A DNA stretch of 10,628 nucleotides, taken from NCBI GenBank assembly GCA_003448025.1, contig DLXL01000269.1:10742-21369 (forward strand), written 5' to 3'. The translations under genes and the position numbers were made by a program. Shown one piece after another: positions 2 to 10,535 of this stretch. A model generated the notes under the pieces. The model was not told the origin of the DNA and made no database searches. It saw nothing but the letters and a program-made list of their open reading frames with translations. Every line of letters starts with the position of its first letter. Within the stretch, counting starts at the first letter, position 1. This DNA is from Saprospirales bacterium. GTDB taxonomy: Bacteria; Bacteroidota; Bacteroidia; Chitinophagales; Saprospiraceae.

Positions 2-3000
2 GATTACAACAACGCAACAGACCCCAATCACCAGGCACTGCAGTTCCCGATGGATTGTGCCATTTGTCACAACGAAACAGCCTGGGAACCTTCCATTTTT
101 GATCACAACGCCGTTTACCCATTGAACGGAGTGCATGCCGTCATTGCCAATGATTGCAATGCCTGCCACCATGGCAATTACGTCAATACCCCGAATACCT
201 GCTTTGGTTGTCACACCGAGGATTACAACCAGGTGGCCAATCCCAATCACCAGCAGGCTCAATTCCCTACGGATTGCACGATTTGCCATACAGAAACGGC
301 CTGGACACCCACTACTTTTGACCATAACGCCATTTATCCCTTCACGGGCGCTCACATGGCCATAGCCGACGATTGTGTGGCCTGTCACCATGGCAATTAT
401 GTGAATACCCCGAATACCTGTGCGGGCTGTCACACGCCTGATTACAACGCTACTGCTAATCCCAACCACCCGGCACTCGGTATTCCAACAGATTGTGCCC
501 TGTGCCACACCACGGATCCTGGTTGGGCGCCGGCTACTTTCCCGATCCACAACAATTATTATCCGTTAAACGGGGCACATGCCGGAATTGCCAACGATTG
601 CGCCACCTGCCACAACGGAGATTATAACAATACGCCCAATACCTGTAACGGATGCCATAACGCCGATTATCTGGGTACCACCAATCCTGATCACGAGGTT
701 GTACAATTCCCGACCGATTGTGCGCTTTGCCATGGTGAAACCGCCTGGTCGCCTTCTACATTCGATCACAGCAGTATTTATCCATTTACCGGGGCGCACA
801 TAGCCATTGCATCTGACTGTAACGCCTGTCACCAGGGTAATTACAACAATACACCCAATACCTGTGAAGGGTGTCATACACCGGATTACGATGCCAGTCT
901 TAATCCGAATCATGCAGCAATCGGGATACCTGTTACCTGCGCCCTTTGCCACACCACCGATCCGGGTTGGGCGCCGGCCACCTTCCCGATACATAACAAC
1001 TATTATCCGCTAAACGGGGCACACTCGGTGATCGCTGAGGACTGTGTTACCTGTCATAATGGCGACTATAACAATACACCCAATACTTGTGTGGGTTGTC
1101 ACCAGTCTGATTACAACGACACTTCCAATCCGGACCACGAGACGCTGCAATTCCCTACCGATTGTGCACAGTGTCATGGCGAAACGGCCTGGGTGCCAGC
1201 TACCTTTGACCACTCTGCCATATATCCTTTCACCGGGGCACATATAGCTATTGCCAATGATTGTGATGCCTGCCACCATGGCAATTACAACAATACGCCA
1301 AATACTTGCGAAGGTTGCCACACACCGGATTTCAATGCCAGTCTGAATCCGAATCACGTGACATTGGGCATTCCAACGGATTGTGCCATGTGCCATACCA
1401 CCGATCCGGGCTGGGCGCCAGCCACCTTTCCGATACACAACAACTATTATCCGTTAAACGGTGCGCATGCAGGCATTTCCAACGATTGTGCCGTGTGTCA
1501 TAACGGCGATTACAACAATACCCCCAATACCTGTGTGGGGTGCCACCAGGCTGATTACAATAATACCACTAACCCGGATCACGAAGCCGCCCAGTTCCCA
1601 ACCGATTGTGCCATTTGCCACAGCGAAACGGCCTGGGTGCCTTCTACTTTTGACCACAATGCCATTTATCCGTTCACAGGCGCGCACATAGCCATCGCGG
1701 ACGACTGCAATGCTTGTCACCACGGCGATTACAATAACACGCCTAATACTTGTGAAGGTTGCCATACGCCGGATTACAATGCCAGTTTGAACCCGAATCA
1801 CGTGACGCTGGGTATCCCGACAGATTGTGCCATGTGTCATACGACCGATCCTGGCTGGGCGCCGGCCACCTTCCCGATACACAACAACTATTATCCGTTA
1901 AATGGTGCACATGCCGGCATCTCCAACGATTGCGCCGTGTGTCACAACGGGGATTACAATAATACCCCTAATACCTGTGTCGGTTGTCACCAGGCTGATT
2001 ACAACAATACCACTAATCCGGATCACGAAGCAGCCCAGTTCCCCACCGATTGTACGATTTGTCATGGTGAAACGGCCTGGGTCCCTTCCACCTTTGACCA
2101 TACGGCCATCTATCCGTTCACTGGTGCGCATATAGCTATTGCGGACGACTGCAATGCATGCCACCAGGGCAATTATAACAATACGCCTAACACTTGTGAG
2201 GGTTGCCATACACCGGATTATAATGCCAGTCTGAACCCCAACCATGCCACGCTGTCCATTCCAACGGATTGCGCCATGTGCCATACTACCGATGCTGGAT
2301 GGGAACCGGCCACCTTCCCTATACACAACAACTATTGGCCCCTCAATGGCGCACATACGGTGGCTTCCTGCGTGGATTGTCATAACGGGGATTACAACAA
2401 TACACCCACCACCTGTGTTGCCTGTCACCAGGCTGATTACAATGCGGCACTAGATCCCAACCACCAAACCAATAACCTGCCGCTAACCTGCCAGGATTGT
2501 CATAATGAAACAGCCTGGTCGCCGTCAACGTTCGACCACAACAGCGTTTATCCGTTTACAGGTGCGCATATTCCTATTGCGGATGATTGTAATGCCTGTC
2601 ACCAGGGCAATTACAACAATACGCCCAATACCTGTGAAGGCTGTCATATGCCGGATTACAATACCAGTGTGAATCCAAATCACGTCTCATTGTCCATTCC
2701 AACGGATTGCGCCATGTGTCACACTACAGATCCGGATTGGATGCCTGCTACCTTCCCCATTCACGATAATTATTGGCCATTGAATGGGGCACATACAAGT
2801 CTGAATTGTGTGGATTGTCATAACGGAAATTACAATAACACTCCCAATACCTGTAACGGGTGCCACAACGACGATTACATAGCCACCACCAATCCGAACC
2901 ATACACAGGCAGGATTCCCAACCACCTGCCAGGATTGTCATACCGAGGATGCCTGGATTCCATCTTTCTGGGATCACAGTACCTGGCCACTTACCGGGGC

Positions 3001-3409
3001 GCATCTTAATGCGGCCTGTACGGATTGTCACATCAATGGCAATTACAACAACACGCCCAATACCTGTTTTGGTTGCCACGCTTCCGATTACAACAATGCC
3101 AACGATCCGGATCACTCTGCAGCGCAGTTCCCAACCACTTGCGAAGACTGTCATACCACTACTGCCTGGATACCCTCAACCTGGGATCATGATCAACAGT
3201 ATTTCCCCATATTTAGTGGTACCCACAACAATGAATGGGATCAGTGTATAGACTGCCATACGACTCCCGGAAACTTTTTAGTTTTCAGCTGCATAGATTG
3301 TCATGAACACGATGATCCGGTGGATATGGCGGATCACCACCAAGGCGTACCCGGGTATCAATACAATAGCCCCGCCTGCTATAGTTGTCACCCGGACGGA
3401 AATAACTAA
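2..3409 (+). CDS. Giant tandem-repeat multiheme c-type cytochrome, 5' end outside window
   Basis: The frame is open to the left edge. The ATG at 50 is not a start: it sits inside a module where other copies read FPTDC (here FPMDC), and the repeat continues upstream of it. The visible 1,135 residues hold 46 CxxCH heme-attachment sites, about one per 25 residues. Fourteen modules of 71-75 residues each carry three CxxCH plus three further invariant His (in FDH or PIH, in GAH, and in NPNH or NPDH). That ratio fits bis-His ligation of every heme, as in the cytochrome c3/c7 class. A diverged 92-residue end piece has four CxxCH and finishes in CYSCHPDGNN. I see no Lys or Arg in the visible part; Asp, Asn, Thr, Pro and His are abundant. 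The signal peptide must lie upstream. Expected location is the periplasm or cell surface, with heme added by a synthase such as the CcsBA encoded nearby. The partner barrel gene starts seven bases after the stop. Electron transport is secure as a class function; the substrate and the exact location are unknown. Confidence 0.93.
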   Translation, partial: DYNNATDPNHQALQFPMDCAICHNETAWEPSIFDHNAVYPLNGVHAVIANDCNACHHGNYVNTPNTCFGCHTEDYNQVANPNHQQAQFPTDCTICHTETAWTPTTFDHNAIYPFTGAHMAIADDCVACHHGNYVNTPNTCAGCHTPDYNATANPNHPALGIPTDCALCHTTDPGWAPATFPIHNNYYPLNGAHAGIANDCATCHNGDYNNTPNTCNGCHNADYLGTTNPDHEVVQFPTDCALCHGETAWSPSTFDHSSIYPFTGAHIAIASDCNACHQGNYNNTPNTCEGCHTPDYDASLNPNHAAIGIPVTCALCHTTDPGWAPATFPIHNNYYPLNGAHSVIAEDCVTCHNGDYNNTPNTCVGCHQSDYNDTSNPDHETLQFPTDCAQCHGETAWVPATFDHSAIYPFTGAHIAIANDCDACHHGNYNNTPNTCEGCHTPDFNASLNPNHVTLGIPTDCAMCHTTDPGWAPATFPIHNNYYPLNGAHAGISNDCAVCHNGDYNNTPNTCVGCHQADYNNTTNPDHEAAQFPTDCAICHSETAWVPSTFDHNAIYPFTGAHIAIADDCNACHHGDYNNTPNTCEGCHTPDYNASLNPNHVTLGIPTDCAMCHTTDPGWAPATFPIHNNYYPLNGAHAGISNDCAVCHNGDYNNTPNTCVGCHQADYNNTTNPDHEAAQFPTDCTICHGETAWVPSTFDHTAIYPFTGAHIAIADDCNACHQGNYNNTPNTCEGCHTPDYNASLNPNHATLSIPTDCAMCHTTDAGWEPATFPIHNNYWPLNGAHTVASCVDCHNGDYNNTPTTCVACHQADYNAALDPNHQTNNLPLTCQDCHNETAWSPSTFDHNSVYPFTGAHIPIADDCNACHQGNYNNTPNTCEGCHMPDYNTSVNPNHVSLSIPTDCAMCHTTDPDWMPATFPIHDNYWPLNGAHTSLNCVDCHNGNYNNTPNTCNGCHNDDYIATTNPNHTQAGFPTTCQDCHTEDAWIPSFWDHSTWPLTGAHLNAACTDCHINGNYNNTPNTCFGCHASDYNNANDPDHSAAQFPTTCEDCHTTTAWIPSTWDHDQQYFPIFSGTHNNEWDQCIDCHTTPGNFLVFSCIDCHEHDDPVDMADHHQGVPGYQYNSPACYSCHPDGNN
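47..3130 (+). repeat. Tandem triheme module array with 444-bp two-module period
   Basis: Module starts, taken at the Pro before (T/D)C, are at 47, 266, 485, 710, 929, 1154, 1373, 1598, 1817, 2042, 2261, 2480, 2699 and 2918. Two types alternate from 266. Type A (73 residues) has ETAW, a FDH His and CEGCHTPDY. Type B (75 residues) has TTDPGW, a PIHNNYYPLNG segment and CVGCHQADY. An A+B pair is exactly 148 residues, so equivalent points recur every 444 bases from 266 to 2261. The module at 47 is type A, so two A modules stand side by side at the left. Modules from 2261 on lose two residues between the second conserved His and the second heme motif, and diverge further towards the end. The repeat also produces long empty antisense frames at 444-base spacing. 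Confidence 0.93.
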
Positions 3410-3416
3410 GCGTCAT

Positions 3417-5042
3417 ATGAAATACTGGATTTTCATAGTCAGTTTGCTCATGGGGCCAACACTCCTGGTTGGGCAGAATAACCAGACCCTCGAGAAGGGT
3501 ACGGCGAGTTTTGTTTCGTCACAAAACGTCTATGTAAAGTTCAGTGCAACAGAAAATATCAATAAAGGCGATACCCTTTTTATCAAAGAGGCAGATAAGC
3601 TCAAGCCAGCCCTTATCGTAAAAGAAAAATCGTCCAGTTCCTGTGTTTGCAGTTCGCTTTTGCCTGAAAAGGTTAAAATAGGAACGGAGTTTTATGCCAG
3701 GGTTCAGGTAAAAAAAGAGCCGGAAAAGCAAAAGGAGCGCAAGGCAAAGGACCGCCCTGTCGTAAGTCAGGACAGCAGTTTGAAACCACCTCCGGTAGTG
3801 ATCCCGCCACAGCAGGAAGACAAGGACGAAGTAAGCTACAAACAGAAATCGAAGGGGCGCGTTTCCGCTGCCACCTATAGCAGTCTGGCCGGCGCCGAGC
3901 AAACCCACCGCATGCGGTACACCTTTATGTATCAGGGTAATAACCTGCGAAATTCACGATTTTCCACCGAGCAATACATAACCTTCCGGCACACTTCGGG
4001 CGCCTGGAATGAGGTGAAAGAGAATTTTAACAATGCCCTTAAAGTGTATTCTCTGTCCGTGAAGTATGACCTGGGTAAATATTCCAGTATAACCCTGGGC
4101 CGGAAAATCAACCAGCGCATTTCCAGCATGGGCGCTATCGACGGATTGCAGTTTGAGAAAGGAGTGAAGAACTTTATGGTGGGGGCCATCGTGGGCTCAA
4201 GACCGGATTATGCCGATTATCGCCTGAACGTAAACCTGTTTCAGGCCGGGGTATATGTTGGTTACGTTAACCGCAATCCGCAGAGACACCGGGAAACCAC
4301 CTTTGGGGTGATTGAACAGCGCAACCATGCACGTACAGATCGCCGATTTGCCTATTTTCAGCATTCCAATAACCTCACAAAAAGCATGAGCCTGTTCGGC
4401 TCTATGGAAGTCGATATGTATCAGGTGGTAGACAGTGTGGTCACGAACGCCATGCGAATTACCAATATTTTGCTTACACTCCGATACAAGGTGTCTAAAC
4501 AGTTCAGTTTGTCTGGTGGGTACGACAACCGTAGAAACATCATCTATTACGAGTCGTACAAGAGCTATATAGACCAGTTGATTGATGATGAAACCCGGCA
4601 GGGATTGAGACTTGGCGCCACCTATCGAATCAGCAAGCGGATCAACTGGGGAGCGAACACCAGTTGGCGGTTTCAAAAGAGCAATTTAAACCTCTCTAAA
4701 AACCTCAACACCTACCTGAATTTTAATCGTCTGCCCTGGATTCATTCCAGTCTTTCCCTTTCTGTTAACTGGTTGCAGACGACCTATCTGACCAGCAAAA
4801 TGTATGGGGCCCGCTTGAACCAGGAGCTCATCCGGGGCAAGTTGAACGGCGAATTGTACTACAGAATGGTAGATTATGATTACGGAAATGAACAAAGCCG
4901 TTTCATGCAGCATATCGCAGGCGCCGACTTGTCGTGGAACATCACCCGCACACTGGGACTTTACCTCTATTATGAAGGAACCTATACCGATTCAAGGGCT
5001 GCTTTTCACAGGGTGAATACCAGAATTATTCAGCGATTTTGA
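3417..5042 (+). CDS. Outer-membrane beta-barrel protein paired with the multiheme cytochrome
   Basis: The product has 541 residues. The ATG at 3417 is chosen because it starts a clean signal peptide (MKYWIFIVSLLMGPTLLVGQ, cut near residue 20); the frame extends further upstream but overlaps the cytochrome gene. Residues 27-96 form a small beta-rich domain, possibly SH3-like, with a CVC pair at 76-78. Residues 97-148 are a charged, Pro-rich linker with a very basic stretch at 97-113. From about 149 to the end there are alternating polar/hydrophobic strands rich in Tyr, Trp and Phe, and the last residue is Phe (IIQRF), the usual mark of a barrel recognised by BamA. About 390 barrel residues would allow roughly 14-18 strands. 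The gene begins seven bases after the cytochrome stop, so the two are almost certainly co-transcribed. I cannot assign a named family. A porin-like sheath or surface anchor for the cytochrome, by analogy with MtrB/PioB-type conduits, is inference. It contains no CxxCH. Confidence 0.85.
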   Translation: MKYWIFIVSLLMGPTLLVGQNNQTLEKGTASFVSSQNVYVKFSATENINKGDTLFIKEADKLKPALIVKEKSSSSCVCSSLLPEKVKIGTEFYARVQVKKEPEKQKERKAKDRPVVSQDSSLKPPPVVIPPQQEDKDEVSYKQKSKGRVSAATYSSLAGAEQTHRMRYTFMYQGNNLRNSRFSTEQYITFRHTSGAWNEVKENFNNALKVYSLSVKYDLGKYSSITLGRKINQRISSMGAIDGLQFEKGVKNFMVGAIVGSRPDYADYRLNVNLFQAGVYVGYVNRNPQRHRETTFGVIEQRNHARTDRRFAYFQHSNNLTKSMSLFGSMEVDMYQVVDSVVTNAMRITNILLTLRYKVSKQFSLSGGYDNRRNIIYYESYKSYIDQLIDDETRQGLRLGATYRISKRINWGANTSWRFQKSNLNLSKNLNTYLNFNRLPWIHSSLSLSVNWLQTTYLTSKMYGARLNQELIRGKLNGELYYRMVDYDYGNEQSRFMQHIAGADLSWNITRTLGLYLYYEGTYTDSRAAFHRVNTRIIQRF

Positions 5043-5166: not shown

Positions 5167-5934
5167 ATGAAGCCTTACACGAAAGTCGTTTTGTTTTCCT
5201 GGATCCTGCTGAGCCTTTCTGCCTGCGATTCCAAACCCAGAGTTATTGAAGCAGAGGGAGCAGATGCACAAAATGCCCCCATATTTAAGGATGTCCAGCA
5301 CAACCATGGTGAAGCTGCACCGGCGCAGGAGGCGGATGGGAAGGAACACAAAGTGGTAGTAGCCGAAACCTTGCATACGGATAAGTATACCTACCTCCGG
5401 GTAAAAGAGGAGGAGGAAGAGTATTGGATCGCCATTACCAAAAGAGAGGTCAAAGTGGGAAGTACCTGCTATTACCGTGGTGGATTACTGAAGAAAAACT
5501 TCCAAAGCAAGGAATTCAACCGTGTATTTGAAACGGTATACCTCGTAGGCGATTTCAGGGAGGAGAATGAAGGCGCGTCTGCCGCCAGGGGGGGAGGCAT
5601 TCCGGCAGGCTCGGAAGCTTTGGAACCGCCGAAAAATGTACAACGCGCTCCCGGAGCGATCAAGATTTCCGATCTGGTGGCCAATGCGGCTAAATACAAT
5701 GGCAAGACGGTAAAGATCACCGGCAAATGCGTCAAGATCAACCCAATGATCATGGGCAGAAACTGGCTCCATATTCAGGATGGATCCGGCAAAAACCTGG
5801 ACCTAACCGTTACGACTACCGAAATGGTACAGCTTGGCGCTATAGTAACACTGGAAGGGGTATGGGCTACCAACAAGGATTTTGGCGCCGGCTACAAGTA
5901 CGATTACATTCTGGAGGCTGCCGTACTCAAATAG
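5167..5934 (+). CDS. Lipoprotein with two OB-like domains
   Basis: The product has 255 residues. A short N-terminus with a hydrophobic core and the lipobox LSAC (Cys20) marks a lipoprotein. Asp follows the Cys, and I see no Lys-Glu/Asp-rich surface-export signal after it, so a periplasm-facing anchor is likelier than surface display. A flexible stretch (21-60) includes a HNH at 45-47. Residues 61-130 form a first beta-rich domain (YTYLRV, EYWIAI, VKVGSTCYYRGG). Residues 165-254 form a second domain of OB-fold type (YNGKTVKITGK, MGRNWLHIQDGSG, LTVTT, VTLEG, DFGAGYKYD). A Gly/Pro-rich linker joins them. There is no CxxCH; single Cys at 101 and 188. OB proteins of this secreted class occur beside respiratory and cytochrome genes, but their role is poorly defined; a chaperone or assembly factor is only a guess. 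The gene has its own promoter and ends 14 bases before a strong hairpin. Confidence 0.82.
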   Translation: MKPYTKVVLFSWILLSLSACDSKPRVIEAEGADAQNAPIFKDVQHNHGEAAPAQEADGKEHKVVVAETLHTDKYTYLRVKEEEEEYWIAITKREVKVGSTCYYRGGLLKKNFQSKEFNRVFETVYLVGDFREENEGASAARGGGIPAGSEALEPPKNVQRAPGAIKISDLVANAAKYNGKTVKITGKCVKINPMIMGRNWLHIQDGSGKNLDLTVTTTEMVQLGAIVTLEGVWATNKDFGAGYKYDYILEAAVLK

Positions 5935-6024: not shown

Positions 6025-9000
6025 TTACGTCCATTTTTGGTAGGCGCGGTGTTTCCACATGGCCAGCAAGCTGATGAGGATCAATGCGCCAACGATGTAA
6101 TACACAAAGGACGGTACAGGCACCGGATCGCCCGCTGCATAGGAATGCAGGCCGGACAGGTAATAGTTCACGCCAAAATAAGTCATGGCTACAGAGGCCC
6201 AACCGAACAGGGTGGCCACGTTGAAAGCGTATACGCCACGCAATCCGGGAATAAACCGCATATGTAAAATGAAGGAATACACCAGAATGGTCACCAGCGC
6301 CCAGGTTTCCTTGGCATCCCAGCCCCAGTAACGCCCCCAGGATTCATTGGCCCAAACACCTCCCAGATAAGTGCCAATGCTGATCATGTACAGCCCGCCA
6401 ATCAGGGTCATTTCACTGATAGTGGTCATTTCCTGAATGATCCGGTATACGTTTTGATGGTTTTTCCGGTTGGCAAATATCATGAAAATCAGGTTCAGTA
6501 CACCGATGATCGCGCCTAAAACCAGAAAACCGTAGCTGCCGGCCTCCAGCGATACGTGGATGGTAAGCCAATAGGATTTCAGTACCGGAACCAGGGGGGT
6601 AATTTCCGGATCCAGCCAGCTCAATCCTGCTACCATCATAATAGTGGATGCCAACACAGAAGTAGCCGTCAGGGCCCCGTACGATTTTCGGGCAAAGATC
6701 AACCCTGCCAAAACCGTAGTCCAGCCAATATAAATCAACGACTCATAACCATTGCTCCACGGCGCTCTGCCGGATATGTACCAACGAAGCCCAAGTCCGA
6801 AGGTATGCAGGGCAAATGCGGTCAGCAGTCCCCAAAACAGCACTTTGGATACGAGTTGAAGTCTGTTGTCCGGCTTGAAAACCGCACTGAAAAGCAGCAC
6901 CAGGTAGGCCAGGCCCAGCAGTCCGTAAAGCCCTGTCAGCCGATTGAAGATATTGAGTTTGTTCAGCAGCAATTCGGCATTCACCACACTTTCCGAGGGC
7001 AAAATGGAGCCTCCGTATTTCTGTTGGTACTGGTCGAGTTCAGCCACCATCCGGTTGGGCAGATCCCAATCGTTGGATTGCATGGCCTCCAGCAATGCCG
7101 GCACATACATAGGGTAAAAGCCCTCCACAATGGTACTCCCGCCGGCCTGATGCTGATGCCTGTGCTCGCTGTGTTCCGGTGCAAGCCAGGTATTGGAAGT
7201 GTCGCCCGGTATCGGGAACACTTTCATGAACCTGCCGGAAAATATCAAAGCACAGATGTTCACCTTTTCATCCACTTTAACCAGCTCTTTTTCAAATACC
7301 CCGCGGTCCCGGGGAGCGCTGTTGGACGCTTTTCTAACCGCATCCCGAAGTTTATACGCGCCGGTTTCATCAAAAAAATCGTTGTAGCAAACCATGTCAC
7401 TGTTCACCTGAAGCAGGTTTCTGATCTCCTCATGTTTGCCGATTTTAATGATCCGGGCATCATACCAGTCTTCAGGTTTGGCGGTCATACCCAGGATGAT
7501 CTGCTCGGCATCCAGTCCAAACATCGACTCCTTTCGGGCGAGTTTGCGCATGACCTCGTTGGCAAACGTGTTCATCGGCTTAAATCGGCCGCGCTGGTCC
7601 TGTACCAGTAGTTTGCCAAAGCGGTGGGCGTGATCTGCACTGATCGCGTTTGACCCCGGTGCAGGAGGATCGGCAATAGCCATCGGCGCATTCCAGCCGA
7701 ATAGGGCCAACACCAGCCAAACAGCTGCTTTTCCGGCAACACGCCGCATTTTTTTAAGGTTCCCTGCCAGTTGCATAAACCGGCTGTTGGCAGTAAACAG
7801 GCTCAATATCATGCCAAGGGTAAGGATAATGTATCCTATATAGGAAATCCAGGTGCCCGGTGCGTCGTGATTGACACTCAGGTAGGTGCCCAGCTCATCC
7901 TGATCGTAGGAGGATTGAAAAAAGCGATAGCCGTCGTAATCCAGGATATGATTCATGTAGATACGCTGATTGCGCACCAATCGATTCCGGCTGTCGGTGA
8001 GCGTAACTTCACTGGCATAGGAGGAGGCACTGTTGGTGCCGGGATAACGCTCCATGATGAAATCCCGCAGTTTTATGGAAAAAGGCAATGCTACACGCCT
8101 GGCGCCATACGATACTGCCAACTCCGCATCGCCCAGGGAAACCACAGTTGGCCGGCCTTCAACGCCCTGCATGCCGGAAACGAACACCTGCTTCGGCGTT
8201 CCATTCCAGGTGATGTTAAGCTCCAGTCCGCCACGACTGGTACTGGTCATTTTGGGGCTGGAGGAGGTGATCTCTGTTTTGGCACTGGGATTGAAATCAC
8301 CGAAAACAAAGCTTTCTACGCCATTGGAATACAAGCTGCGCAGCATGAGCGGATGTTCAAGGCCTGCTTCAAGGGTGTCCCTGGTTTGGGTGGCCATTAC
8401 CATTTGCGCGAAAGCGGTGGGCGCTTTGAAAGTCAGATTTTTTTGCTCGTATTTGATGTTGAATGCTGCCGGATCTTCAGGGTTGCCGAAGTTGAACAGC
8501 GTGCCATAGATGTTTACTTTGTCGAGATACCTGACTAAAAACTCTTCTCTGCCATTCATCCCGCCGATGACCACTTTGATGATGGGAACCCCGTTCGGAT
8601 CCGAGGTCAGGGTTTCCTGAGGGTTGGGAATAAAACGATTAAGCGACACGTTCAATTCCTTGTTTTGGATCAGGTACGACCGCTCTAATTCATTTTTACC
8701 CAGGGAAGCGAACAAAACAGGCTCGTCAAAAACATACCGTTTGCCATTGGACAATAACTGAAACTGCACATAGGACTCGGAACTCAGGTAAGTATTGGAA
8801 GCGCTTCCTTCACGAATATTCATCATACCTTCCGTTCCAAAATATCGGGTAACACCGGCACCCAACAAAATGACCAGAATGGCCACATGAAAGGTCAGAA
8901 TAGCCCACTTTTTTTGCTGTGCCATGCGATACCGCACAATATTCACAGCTATGGAGATACCAAACAATACAAGTATGGCTTCAAACCACCGGGACTTGAA

Positions 9001-9141
9001 AATTAGTTTTTGAGCGGCACTGGTACCAAAATCATTCTCGATAAAAGTGGCAACCCCGATGGCCGCGGCAAACAACAACATGTACAATCCCGCTGCGGAG
9101 GTGGAGAACAGCCTGTCTGACAATTTTTTCAATACATTCAT
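6025..9141 (-). CDS. ccsBA: Fused ResB-CcsA (CcsBA) system II cytochrome c heme lyase
   Basis: The product has 1,038 residues from the start chosen here (MNVLKKLSD), which places the first membrane helix at the usual distance; an in-frame ATG at 9165 would add eight residues (MLPFCYTS). Neither start has a clear ribosome site. The N-terminal ResB part has membrane helices near 17-33, 53-69 and 79-97, with His85 in the third, then a large periplasmic region and another helix near 430. A second periplasmic region (FKPMNTFANEVMRKLARK) follows. The C-terminal CcsA part has several helices, the Trp-rich heme-handling motif WGRYWGWDAKE (Asp942) and conserved His779 (HTFGLGLRWY), His862 (TIHVSLEAG) and His999 (GLHSYA). 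The family exports heme across the inner membrane and ligates it to CxxCH of apocytochromes. The thiol-reducing partners (ResA/CcdA type) are not in the window. The gene is convergent with the lipoprotein and divergent from the tsdA-like gene. It appears intact. Confidence 0.95.
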   Translation of the reverse strand: MNVLKKLSDRLFSTSAAGLYMLLFAAAIGVATFIENDFGTSAAQKLIFKSRWFEAILVLFGISIAVNIVRYRMAQQKKWAILTFHVAILVILLGAGVTRYFGTEGMMNIREGSASNTYLSSESYVQFQLLSNGKRYVFDEPVLFASLGKNELERSYLIQNKELNVSLNRFIPNPQETLTSDPNGVPIIKVVIGGMNGREEFLVRYLDKVNIYGTLFNFGNPEDPAAFNIKYEQKNLTFKAPTAFAQMVMATQTRDTLEAGLEHPLMLRSLYSNGVESFVFGDFNPSAKTEITSSSPKMTSTSRGGLELNITWNGTPKQVFVSGMQGVEGRPTVVSLGDAELAVSYGARRVALPFSIKLRDFIMERYPGTNSASSYASEVTLTDSRNRLVRNQRIYMNHILDYDGYRFFQSSYDQDELGTYLSVNHDAPGTWISYIGYIILTLGMILSLFTANSRFMQLAGNLKKMRRVAGKAAVWLVLALFGWNAPMAIADPPAPGSNAISADHAHRFGKLLVQDQRGRFKPMNTFANEVMRKLARKESMFGLDAEQIILGMTAKPEDWYDARIIKIGKHEEIRNLLQVNSDMVCYNDFFDETGAYKLRDAVRKASNSAPRDRGVFEKELVKVDEKVNICALIFSGRFMKVFPIPGDTSNTWLAPEHSEHRHQHQAGGSTIVEGFYPMYVPALLEAMQSNDWDLPNRMVAELDQYQQKYGGSILPSESVVNAELLLNKLNIFNRLTGLYGLLGLAYLVLLFSAVFKPDNRLQLVSKVLFWGLLTAFALHTFGLGLRWYISGRAPWSNGYESLIYIGWTTVLAGLIFARKSYGALTATSVLASTIMMVAGLSWLDPEITPLVPVLKSYWLTIHVSLEAGSYGFLVLGAIIGVLNLIFMIFANRKNHQNVYRIIQEMTTISEMTLIGGLYMISIGTYLGGVWANESWGRYWGWDAKETWALVTILVYSFILHMRFIPGLRGVYAFNVATLFGWASVAMTYFGVNYYLSGLHSYAAGDPVPVPSFVYYIVGALILISLLAMWKHRAYQKWT

Positions 9142-9270
9142 GCTTGTATAGCAGAAGGGCAGCATGGCCCCGGTTTGTGGAATAAACTGTTGTATATTCG
9201 GTAAAAATAAGGGAAAGGTTGCTACCGGGTGCTAAAGAAATTGCCCCATCGCATCCGGAGAAAAGTTGGC

Positions 9271-9380: not shown

Positions 9381-10535
9381 ATGAACAACGCTGTATACTT
9401 TCCTGCTCTTTGGTTGGGCATTGCAGTAGTGGTGATTGGTATTATGGCTATTCTGGCCGCCATTTCCTATTTCAGGCAAACCATCGGCAAGGATCCTTTG
9501 ACGCGGAGCCAATTTCACCGCCAGATAGTTTTATTGCAACAAATGCGTTGGGTATTATCGCTTCTGGCTATTGCCATGACCGGTGTCGGACTGGGTGCCT
9601 GGTATCTGGATAGTACACAAAAAGAAAAATCCGAAGCAGAAATGCGTGCCGGATTATTGCCGCAATACGACCGTGGCAAAATTTGGGAAGCCCCGGATCC
9701 ATTGCTGGCTGAAACAGATGAACATGCTTCCCTGATAGCCTATGGCCGTGATCTGGTAGCGCGGACGCAAGATTATTTTGGCGAAAACGGACTGGTGCGC
9801 CCCGGAAGTATCAACAACATGAATTGCCAGAACTGTCACCTCGACGCAGGCAGTAAGCCTTATGGTAACAACTATTTTGCCGTGAACAGCACTTACCCGC
9901 AAATGCGCGCACGTTCCGGCTCCCTGGAAACTATTCCTAAACGGATCAACGACTGTTTTGAACGCAGCCTCAATGGTCAGGCACTGGATACGACCGGCCG
10001 GGAAATGCGGGCCATCGTAGCTTATATGCAGTGGCTCGGATCCGGTATTCCCAAAGGCGAAAAACCCAAAGGATCCGGTTTGGCCGAAGTGCCTTTCCTG
10101 AACCGACCCGCAGATCCGGTTCTGGGTAAAAAGATATATGCCGAAAAATGCGCCTCCTGCCACGGCGCAGATGGCCAGGGTCTGCCAATGGCTGCCGACA
10201 GCCCTCGTGATTATCCGCCACTTTGGGGAGATAAAAGCTACAATCAGGCCGCAGGTCTATTCCGGATGTCGCGCTTTGCAGCTTATGTAAAGGCAAATAT
10301 GCCCTTTGGCGCAAGCTACCAAAATCCACAGCTGAGCGATGAAGAAGCCTGGGATGTGGCGGCATATGTGAACTCTCAGCCAAGACCGGCACACCCATTC
10401 TTGAAATCCGACTGGCCTAAAATAGAGAAAAAACCCTACGACCACCCTTTTGGCCCGTACGCAGATCCATTCTCGGAAGAACAACATAAATTTGGACCTT
10501 ACGATCCAATCATAGCCTTTTATAAAAAGGATTAG
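9381..10535 (+). CDS. Membrane-anchored diheme cytochrome c, TsdA-like thiosulfate dehydrogenase family
   Basis: The product has 384 residues. Two N-terminal membrane helices (about 8-30 and 56-76) precede two cytochrome c domains that would face the periplasm. Domain 1 has CQNCH at 149-153, then RINDCFERSLNG with Cys192. In characterised TsdA enzymes a Cys in this region is the distal ligand of the active-site heme. Domain 2 has CASCH at 257-261, the TsdA-type segment YPPLWGDKSYNQAAG and a NMPFG Met307, the likely sixth ligand of the second heme. TsdA enzymes join two thiosulfate to tetrathionate, or run the reverse. The two anchors are unlike the soluble enzymes and suggest electron exchange at the inner membrane. 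The chosen ATG at 9381 begins the first helix directly; the upstream bases are A-rich without a Shine-Dalgarno. The gene is divergent from ccsBA, whose product would mature it. Family membership is fairly secure; the substrate is not proven. Confidence 0.85.
   Translation: MNNAVYFPALWLGIAVVVIGIMAILAAISYFRQTIGKDPLTRSQFHRQIVLLQQMRWVLSLLAIAMTGVGLGAWYLDSTQKEKSEAEMRAGLLPQYDRGKIWEAPDPLLAETDEHASLIAYGRDLVARTQDYFGENGLVRPGSINNMNCQNCHLDAGSKPYGNNYFAVNSTYPQMRARSGSLETIPKRINDCFERSLNGQALDTTGREMRAIVAYMQWLGSGIPKGEKPKGSGLAEVPFLNRPADPVLGKKIYAEKCASCHGADGQGLPMAADSPRDYPPLWGDKSYNQAAGLFRMSRFAAYVKANMPFGASYQNPQLSDEEAWDVAAYVNSQPRPAHPFLKSDWPKIEKKPYDHPFGPYADPFSEEQHKFGPYDPIIAFYKKD

What the first reader, a model, noticed from the sequence alone, without database searches (positions are those of the whole stretch)
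2..3409. A 1,135-residue stretch with no lysine and no arginine
Reading the whole visible cytochrome, I find not one Lys or Arg, while Asp and Glu are frequent. Heme propionates would add still more negative charge. Neighbouring proteins have normal or high Lys/Arg content, so this is specific to the gene and must be selected. It implies an extreme polyanion, perhaps bridged by metal cations or a basic partner. It also means trypsin cannot cut it, so standard tryptic proteomics would miss the protein entirely.
Basis: partly seen in the sequence, partly recalled or inferred. Interest (0 to 1): 0.78.

Follow-up and report, generated by a model that had tools for sequence, protein, structure and literature searches.

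The report
Lysine- and arginine-free giant surface cytochrome
A giant many-heme protein that probably carries electrons outside a Bacteroidota cell has no lysine or arginine over most of its length, and other very large secreted proteins of the same bacterium are nearly stripped of these residues too, so the rule seems to concern what leaves the cell rather than this one gene.

Summary
In detail: 1,135 residues, 46 CxxCH, 0 Lys, 0 Arg. Upstream, K/R are confined to the first ~305 readable residues; 1,694 readable residues are K/R-free. It is selected: eight aligned pairs of relatives show 6 K/R replacements where one-step mutation predicts 193, while Asp/Glu varied freely and the periplasmic sister cytochrome showed no deficit. 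The protein is the presumed extracellular cytochrome of a PCC3-like porin-cytochrome cluster. 'Extreme polyanion' is half right: Asp/Glu are ordinary (10.2%) and K/R are replaced by neutral residues. Trypsin avoidance finds no support: uncuttable K-P/R-P sites are purged equally. The K/R-free state is not universal: some relatives have 4-8%. Best reading: selection against positive charge on large proteins outside the outer membrane; the physical reason is unproven.

The parts
2..3409 (+). C-terminal 1,135 residues of a giant multiheme c-type cytochrome: K/R-free array of about 15 three-heme units of about 74 residues, 46 CxxCH
   Evidence: Open frame and translation; spacing and units; Pfam Cytochrome_C7 PF14522 E 1.2e-57; gene continues upstream outside the window
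3417..5042 (+). Outer-membrane beta-barrel (candidate porin of the conduit), 541 residues, start chosen at the in-frame ATG before a signal peptide-like stretch
   Evidence: No Pfam or NCBIfam hit; AlphaFold2 with 24 rows, pLDDT 80, 22 strands by my count from residue 144; Foldseek best matches are outer-membrane barrels, at low TM-scores; relatives follow the giant cytochrome in other loci
5167..5934 (+). GW-domain protein with a lipoprotein-like start, part of the conserved gene order
   Evidence: Pfam GW PF13457 E 6.4e-7; same gene at this place in the Emticicia plasmid
6025..9165 (-). CcsBA-type cytochrome c synthase (ResB + CcsA/CcmC domains), heme attachment
   Evidence: Pfam PF01578 E 9e-36 and PF05140 E 5.8e-26; NCBIfam CcsB below its cut-off; ccsA also in the Emticicia cluster
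9381..10535 (+). Smaller c-type cytochrome (SoxA/TsdA-like plus cytochrome c domain); may or may not belong to the system
   Evidence: Pfam PF21342 and PF00034

Best explanation
The stretch is the repeat array of the extracellular multiheme cytochrome of a PCC3-like porin-cytochrome conduit. Electrons would pass between the quinone pool and the outside through an inner-membrane di-heme-b-like protein, a K/R-rich 20-23-heme periplasmic cytochrome and a beta-barrel to a single-chain wire of about 80 hemes (inferred from gene content). The array lacks K and R because very large proteins exposed outside the outer membrane in this lineage are under strong selection against positive charge; the cytochrome is the most extreme case seen. 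Shown here: the absence, the purifying selection, its restriction to the part beyond the N-terminal domain and to this cytochrome rather than its presumed periplasmic sister, and a like depletion in non-cytochrome secreted giants. Inferred: cellular locations, that charge is what is avoided, and why. I think the likeliest reason is that long extracellular polymers without cationic side chains do not stick to the cell's own acidic surface sugars, to nucleic acids or to one another and so stay extended, with acidic groups and heme propionates handled by Ca2+/Mg2+.
For: Pair test: changes into K/R 6 seen against 192.7 expected in the giant, D/E 349 against 174.7; periplasmic sister K/R 133 against 69.8, D/E 115 against 59.1. 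Sister richer in K/R in 25 of 25 pairs at equal residues per heme. Own-genome CHU_C giants: body K/R median 1.9%, runs up to 1,680. Eleven genomes: giant K/R against CHU_C K/R rho 0.86, p 0.0007; length-matched 0.82. K/R replaced by A, T, N, Q, S. K-P/R-P sites purged like the rest. PCC3 parts: HX13H membrane protein, barrel.
Against: Cellular locations are not measured. Eleven related genomes are few, the correlation is not corrected for kinship, and the CHU_C stretches were chosen by me from a capped listing. G070 (Aureispira) departs: cytochrome 1.0%, CHU_C 7.1%. T9SS type A proteins of the own genome are less depleted (median 5.6%). Some relatives of the giant carry 3.5-6.9% K/R (20 of 161), Emticicia 8.2%, and 120 of 120 shorter relatives from a distant query have some K/R in the body, median 4.3%, so the system can exist with K/R. 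The anti-sticking reason has no direct evidence. Trypsin-family genes are somewhat more numerous in the K/R-poor genomes, which would fit the protease rival.
Confidence: 0.5

Rival explanations
1. Protease resistance: K and R are removed because extracellular trypsin-like or gingipain-like proteases, own or of neighbours, would cut the chain.
For: Both K and R are gone, in exposed proteins; all 12 genomes searched carry C25 (1-4 matches) and trypsin-family (3-10 matches) genes. Trypsin-family matches are 3, 3, 3 and 5 in the four genomes with K/R-bearing CHU_C proteins and 3-10 in the eight others.
Against: Bonds before proline, which trypsin leaves, are cleared equally: K/R at the W-x-P site make up 13 of 179 in relatives under 0.5% K/R and 98 of 1,271 in those over 3.5%; K/R-P share in CHU_C proteins is 181 of 2,379 at 6.7% Pro against 107 of 1,908 at 4.9% Pro. 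The higher trypsin-family counts go with larger genomes, and the counts include any trypsin-fold gene. A protease that cuts before proline is not excluded.
Confidence: 0.17
2. Cytochrome-specific electrostatics: positive charge is avoided to set heme potentials evenly, to bind cations or positive mineral surfaces, or to dock with a partner.
For: The giant cytochrome is lower in K/R than the CHU_C median in 11 of 11 genomes, and Aureispira (G070) has a K/R-poor cytochrome with ordinary CHU_C proteins. Depletion also occurs in some Ignavibacteria and Zixibacteria relatives.
Against: Non-cytochrome giants of the same genome have K/R-free runs up to 1,680 residues. Relatives with 4-8% K/R keep the same array.
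Confidence: 0.2
3. Salt adaptation: secreted proteins of marine or saline bacteria lose K/R and gain acid.
For: Reported for marine periplasmic and extracellular proteins (PMC11928666, passages read). Acid content of giant and sister go together (rho 0.66).
Against: The periplasm should share it, but the sister has 7.4-17.1% K/R in the 25 pairs. Acid is not raised in the window (10.2%), and open-ended relatives L048 and L019 have no K/R with 4.7% and 5.8% D/E. K/R-poor and K/R-rich loci have like flanking proteins.
Confidence: 0.08
4. Export cost: long chains cross the membranes more easily without positive residues.
For: Among CHU_C proteins of genomes with a low-K/R giant, K/R falls with length (rho -0.32, p 0.012, n 60). 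The giant cytochrome lacks room for a T9SS tail (161 relatives: median 5, at most 89 residues after the last CxxCH), so two routes may share the trait.
Against: Within full-length giants interior K/R does not fall clearly with heme number (rho -0.15, p 0.075, n 136). CHU_C proteins of over 1,000 residues in K/R-rich genomes have about 8% K/R.
Confidence: 0.1
5. Chance of one founding repeat copied many times.
For: The array is repetitive; some units are identical.
Against: 18 K/R changes expected and 0 seen between units; pair test 6 against 193; 31 of 161 relatives with zero K/R in the body.
Confidence: 0.02

Closest known systems
PCC3 porin-cytochrome complex of iron oxidisers (He et al. 2017, PMC5566968: passages and section 15 read; passages of PMC10734462)
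   Same: Gene set of porin, giant extracellular cytochrome, ~21-heme periplasmic cytochrome and ~300-residue inner-membrane protein with two HX13H motifs; low residues per heme; repeats
   Different: Described from Proteobacteria; extra genes here (FAD/NAD(P)-type protein, GW protein, CcsBA, 13-heme paralogue); K/R loss not mentioned in what I read; sequence kinship not tested
Giant Saprospiraceae cytochromes, Bacteroidota with >100 heme motifs (PMC11495043, passages read)
   Same: Very probably the same kind of protein: secreted, Bacteroidota, very many CxxCH
   Different: That paper reports counts; in the passages read, no composition, cluster or mechanism
Marine extracellular proteins with fewer Arg/Lys (PMC11928666, passages read)
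   Same: Fewer Arg/Lys in exported proteins
   Different: A shift of averages with more acidic residues, periplasm included; here near-total loss without acid gain and beside a K/R-rich sister
Lysine deserts of proteasome-linked proteins (PMC10665810, PMC10169902: abstracts in the listing)
   Same: Long stretches without Lys
   Different: Arg is missing here too; no link to ubiquitin or Pup was looked for

Membership tests
PCC3 | Outer-membrane beta-barrel encoded next to the cytochromes | tested here: met
   Model of the window's 541-residue protein, pLDDT 80, 22 strands; Foldseek best hits are outer-membrane barrels, TM-scores low
PCC3 | Periplasmic cytochrome with about 21 hemes | tested here: met
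   20 or 23 CxxCH in all 25 pairs; in the own genome the gene is split by a gap. Location itself not tested
PCC3 | Inner-membrane protein of ~300 residues with two HX13H motifs | tested here: met
   L090, L039, L074 and own contig, Emticicia; five membrane helices not tested
PCC3 | Large extracellular cytochrome with 22-39 residues per heme | tested here: met
   Median 25.5 residues per heme; extracellular place not tested
PCC3 | Sequence kinship with the proteobacterial PCC3 proteins | not tested
   Those sequences could not be reached
T9SS cargo | C-terminal secretion domain (CHU_C or Por_Secre_tail) | tested here: not met
   No such Pfam match in P0001; median 5 residues after the last CxxCH in 161 relatives
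Polymerised cytochrome nanowires (OmcS/OmcE/OmcZ kind) | Sequence match to solved filament cytochromes; filament formation | tested here: inconclusive
   phmmer finds no PDB chain at E <= 1e-5; own repeat model too poor to compare (pLDDT 50); filaments not testable

The most novel reading that the evidence does not exclude
In Lewinella/Phaeodactylibacter-type Bacteroidota the outer membrane is a charge boundary: giant proteins destined for the outside, whatever their fold or secretion route, have been cleared of Lys and Arg by long-term purifying selection, with acid content left free. Such a surface-wide rule, distinct from halophily and from trypsin avoidance, would explain K/R-free stretches of up to about 2,000 residues and would leave a class of surface proteins largely invisible to tryptic proteomics.
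Probability: 0.4. Interest if true: 0.78.

Novelty: new variant of a known kind. Interest (0 to 1): 0.62.

Why it matters
It turns a composition oddity into a testable rule about what can live on a bacterial surface, and it offers natural pairs (K/R-free and K/R-bearing versions of the same many-heme array) to ask what charge does to a biological wire. It also warns that tryptic proteomics may under-report such proteins. In Sideroxydans lithotrophicus ES-1 the extracellular PCC3 cytochrome (Slit_1448) had 0% coverage in 8 of 8 conditions, while the inner-membrane protein and porin of that cluster were seen in 8 of 8 and the periplasmic cytochrome in 7 of 8 (PMC12016527, table passage). I could not check that protein's K/R content, so this is only suggestive; the same paper says multiheme cytochromes are hard to detect because of their modified cysteines.

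Tried and rejected
AlphaFold2 of a four-unit repeat with 23 rows (of 31 segments available) gave pLDDT 50 and was dropped. An apparent fall of K/R with heme number (rho -0.70, n 25) fades when the K/R-bearing ends are removed in 136 sequences (rho -0.15, p 0.075). Heme crowding: rejected, the K/R-rich sister has the same residues per heme. Base composition: thought unlikely, since Asn is the commonest residue and neighbours are normal. Counts of C25 and trypsin families do not decide the protease question. Proteobacterial PCC3 sequences could not be reached: plasmid searches found only Emticicia at full length, and the other listed plasmids matched the periplasmic sister over at most 39%. A search with an Eisenbacteria relative gave 120 listed cytochromes with body K/R 0.5-10.1%, median 4.3%, none zero. 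A Pfam search in 61 genomes of the phylum was not used further. Searches failed on my wrong coordinates and were repeated. In one search one comparison used the wrong ORF of L013; redid it. CHU_C figures (13 of 30 loci of each kind, one strand) were redone. Script one search failed and was redone; one search stopped half-way, its first part is used and the rest was redone. Literature: 10 searches showed no report of K/R-free cytochromes or of a K/R-free secretome in their listings; they cover open-licence PMC papers only, and supplements were not read.
Full report
WHAT IS THERE. Window 2-3409 (+) encodes 1,135 residues with no Lys and no Arg, 46 CxxCH motifs and 98 His. Motif spacing repeats as about 33-35, 15, 25 residues: a three-heme unit of about 74 residues, 15 of them here. 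The window is G000:C441:10742-21369 of a 5.3 Mb, 648-contig genome, 84.5% complete. It starts just after a run of N. Upstream (L009) the gene can be followed in pieces from about 7863: 215 residues with a signal peptide-like start, 7 CxxCH and 14 K/R; an in-frame TGA at 8508-8510; 569 residues with 23 CxxCH and 5 K/R, all in the first 90; a gap; 80 residues with 3 CxxCH; a gap; then the window. That makes 79 CxxCH and 1,694 K/R-free residues that can be read. The two gaps inside the gene are flanked by the same 22 bases on both sides, so copy number and gap length are unsure.

IS THE ABSENCE MORE THAN CHANCE? The four other window proteins have 11.2% K+R over 2,264 residues. Among 498 open frames of 150 residues or more with fewer than 3 CxxCH in 79 related loci, the longest K/R-free run has median 34; one has 479 and the rest at most 106. 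Because the array is a repeat I ran three further tests. First, between the 15 units there are at least 157 amino-acid changes; from the codons about 18 should have given K or R, and none did. Second, I aligned eight pairs (window with L012 and L013, and six pairs of loci that I chose as near relatives). Among replaced codons one-step mutation predicts 192.7 changes into K/R, and 6 replacements involve one. For D/E it predicts 174.7 and 349 are seen. The same count on four pairs of the periplasmic sister gives K/R 133 against 69.8 and D/E 115 against 59.1. Relative to expectation, positive charge is thus about sixty times rarer among replacements in the giant than in its sister, while negative charge is treated alike. 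Third, 161 relatives (169 before 8 duplicates were dropped; the listed best of two searches, not all relatives) show a median body K/R of 0.39%; 31 have none between residue 300 and the last 150, and 20 have more than 3.5%. Of 136 full-length ones 28 have a K/R-free interior. The longest K/R-free runs are 2,043 residues in L026 (94 hemes) and 1,855 in L076; the isolate Phaeodactylibacter xiamenensis KD52 (L090) has 1,691. On a tree of the N-terminal domain (FastTree, 137 rows, many weak branches, midpoint root) 114 rows are under 2% and 23 above; the state needs at least 14 changes, 11 of them forced by well-supported branches. With stricter classes (under 0.5%, over 3%; 93 rows) it needs 7.

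WHERE K AND R REMAIN. In 136 full-length relatives K/R is 5.4-10.4% in seven of the first ten heme intervals, falls to about 1-2% further on, and is 7.2% after the last heme. Short 13-heme paralogues, whose start looks by eye like the same N-terminal domain, have 3.9-6.7%.

NEIGHBOURHOOD. Relatives show a common order: a ~290-residue membrane protein, a ~440-residue protein annotated NAD(P)-binding in Emticicia, a 20-23-heme cytochrome, the giant cytochrome, a ~540-residue barrel, a GW-domain protein, and CcsBA nearby. In 25 of 25 pairs from 24 of 79 loci the first cytochrome is richer in K/R than the giant's body (medians 13.4% and 1.3%) with like residues per heme (26.6 and 25.5), and in 22 of the 25 the giant starts inside the end of the sister gene. 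The membrane protein carries HX13H motifs at two conserved places, as described for the PCC3 inner-membrane protein. The window's barrel was modelled with pLDDT 80 and 22 strands; its best structural matches are outer-membrane barrels at low TM-scores. This fits PCC3 as described by He et al. 2017 (section 15 read), which notes low complexity and small residues but not K/R. Kinship with proteobacterial PCC3 sequences is untested.

THE TURN. A 483-residue non-cytochrome in L038 with a secretion-like start has a 479-residue K/R-free run, so I looked at secreted proteins of the own genome. In 20 stretches around CHU_C (T9SS) matches, giant open frames without CxxCH have body K/R of median 1.9% (0.58-6.6%) and K/R-free runs up to 1,680 and 1,036 residues (where one frame was counted twice, 21 rows; one search counts 20). 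I then took 60 CHU_C stretches from 10 of the 12 genomes, picked by me from a capped listing for frames over about 1,000 residues (none from G066 and G072). In the eight genomes whose giant cytochrome has under 1.5% interior K/R, CHU_C proteins have a median of 2.07% (60 proteins); in the three over 3% the median is 7.9% (20 proteins). Spearman over 11 genomes is 0.86, p 0.0007; in the 1,000-1,900-residue class 0.82. The giant cytochrome is below the CHU_C median in 11 of 11. G070 (Aureispira) departs: cytochrome 1.0%, CHU_C 7.1%. T9SS type A proteins of the own genome are less affected (median 5.6%, 28 of 30 loci, partial frames). These genomes are related and the test is not corrected for that.

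RESULTS AGAINST A UNIVERSAL RULE. Emticicia oligotrophica DSM 17448 carries the cluster on a plasmid with a 40-heme giant at 8.2% K/R. The 120 listed relatives of a shorter Eisenbacteria cytochrome all have some K/R in the body (0.5-10.1%, median 4.3%). So the purge belongs to some lineages and to giant forms, not to the whole cytochrome family.

WHAT IS BEING AVOIDED. Not acid balance: K/R and D/E are weakly linked (rho -0.37), and open-ended relatives L048 and L019 have no K/R with 4.7% and 5.8% D/E. At columns where three K/R-bearing relatives have K/R, 20 others have A, T, N, Q, S, and D+E less often (5.2%) than overall (9.4%). No sign of trypsin avoidance: sites before proline are cleared as thoroughly as others in the cytochromes (13 of 179 against 98 of 1,271) and in CHU_C proteins (181 of 2,379 at 6.7% Pro against 107 of 1,908 at 4.9% Pro). 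Trypsin-family gene counts are somewhat higher in most K/R-poor genomes, which are also mostly larger, so this rival stays open. Not heme crowding. Salinity should act in the periplasm too (PMC11928666), where the presumed sister keeps its K/R. What remains is positive charge on very large proteins outside the cell. My preferred reason, that such chains do not stick to acidic surface polymers or to each other, is inference.

CHARGE. With 116 acidic residues, two propionates on each of 46 hemes (established chemistry), no K/R, and 98 His for 92 heme-ligand places if every heme is bis-His, the stretch must be strongly negative.

VERDICT. Observation confirmed. The gene is a new variant of a known kind (a PCC3-like giant cytochrome), and the K/R purge looks like a rule for giant surface proteins of the lineage. 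The searches listed showed no report of it.

Noticed in passing
L155 (G000:C109:1-9639) and L158 (G000:C238:1-12224): CHU_C-tailed giant proteins of the own genome with K/R-free runs of 1,680 and 1,036 residues, longer than or close to the window's run.
   Followed up: partly
L038:3-1451 (-): 483-residue non-cytochrome of a Saprospiraceae MAG with K/R only in its first residues (479-residue K/R-free run).
   Followed up: partly
L009:8508-8510 (upstream of the window): In-frame TGA in the N-terminal part of the giant cytochrome gene of this draft genome; relatives with intact frames exist. Real mutation or assembly error cannot be told.
   Followed up: no
L009:10218-10368 and 10610-10741: Both scaffold gaps inside the gene have the same 22 bases on each side, so they look like assembly breaks at a repeat and the copy number is unsure.
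   Followed up: no
Full-length relatives, e.g. L090:4553-10669: Heme number is quantised: 125 of 136 full-length relatives have 3n+1 CxxCH motifs, and 98 of 120 shorter relatives from another query do too, as if three-heme units are added or lost whole.
   Followed up: partly
L092 (NC_018749.1:77444-96350): Emticicia oligotrophica DSM 17448 carries the cluster (ccsA, HX13H membrane protein, NAD(P)-binding protein, both cytochromes, barrel, GW protein) on plasmid pEMTOL02, with a K/R-bearing giant (8.2%): a cultured test strain and a sign of mobility.
   Followed up: partly
PMC12016527, coverage table: Extracellular PCC3 cytochrome of Sideroxydans had 0% tryptic coverage in 8 of 8 conditions while the inner-membrane protein, periplasmic cytochrome and porin of that cluster were detected.
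   Followed up: partly
L009:6664-7731: A 13-CxxCH paralogue sits between the K/R-rich cytochrome and the giant gene; it looks by eye like the giant's N-terminal domain with a C-terminal cap and no array.
   Followed up: no
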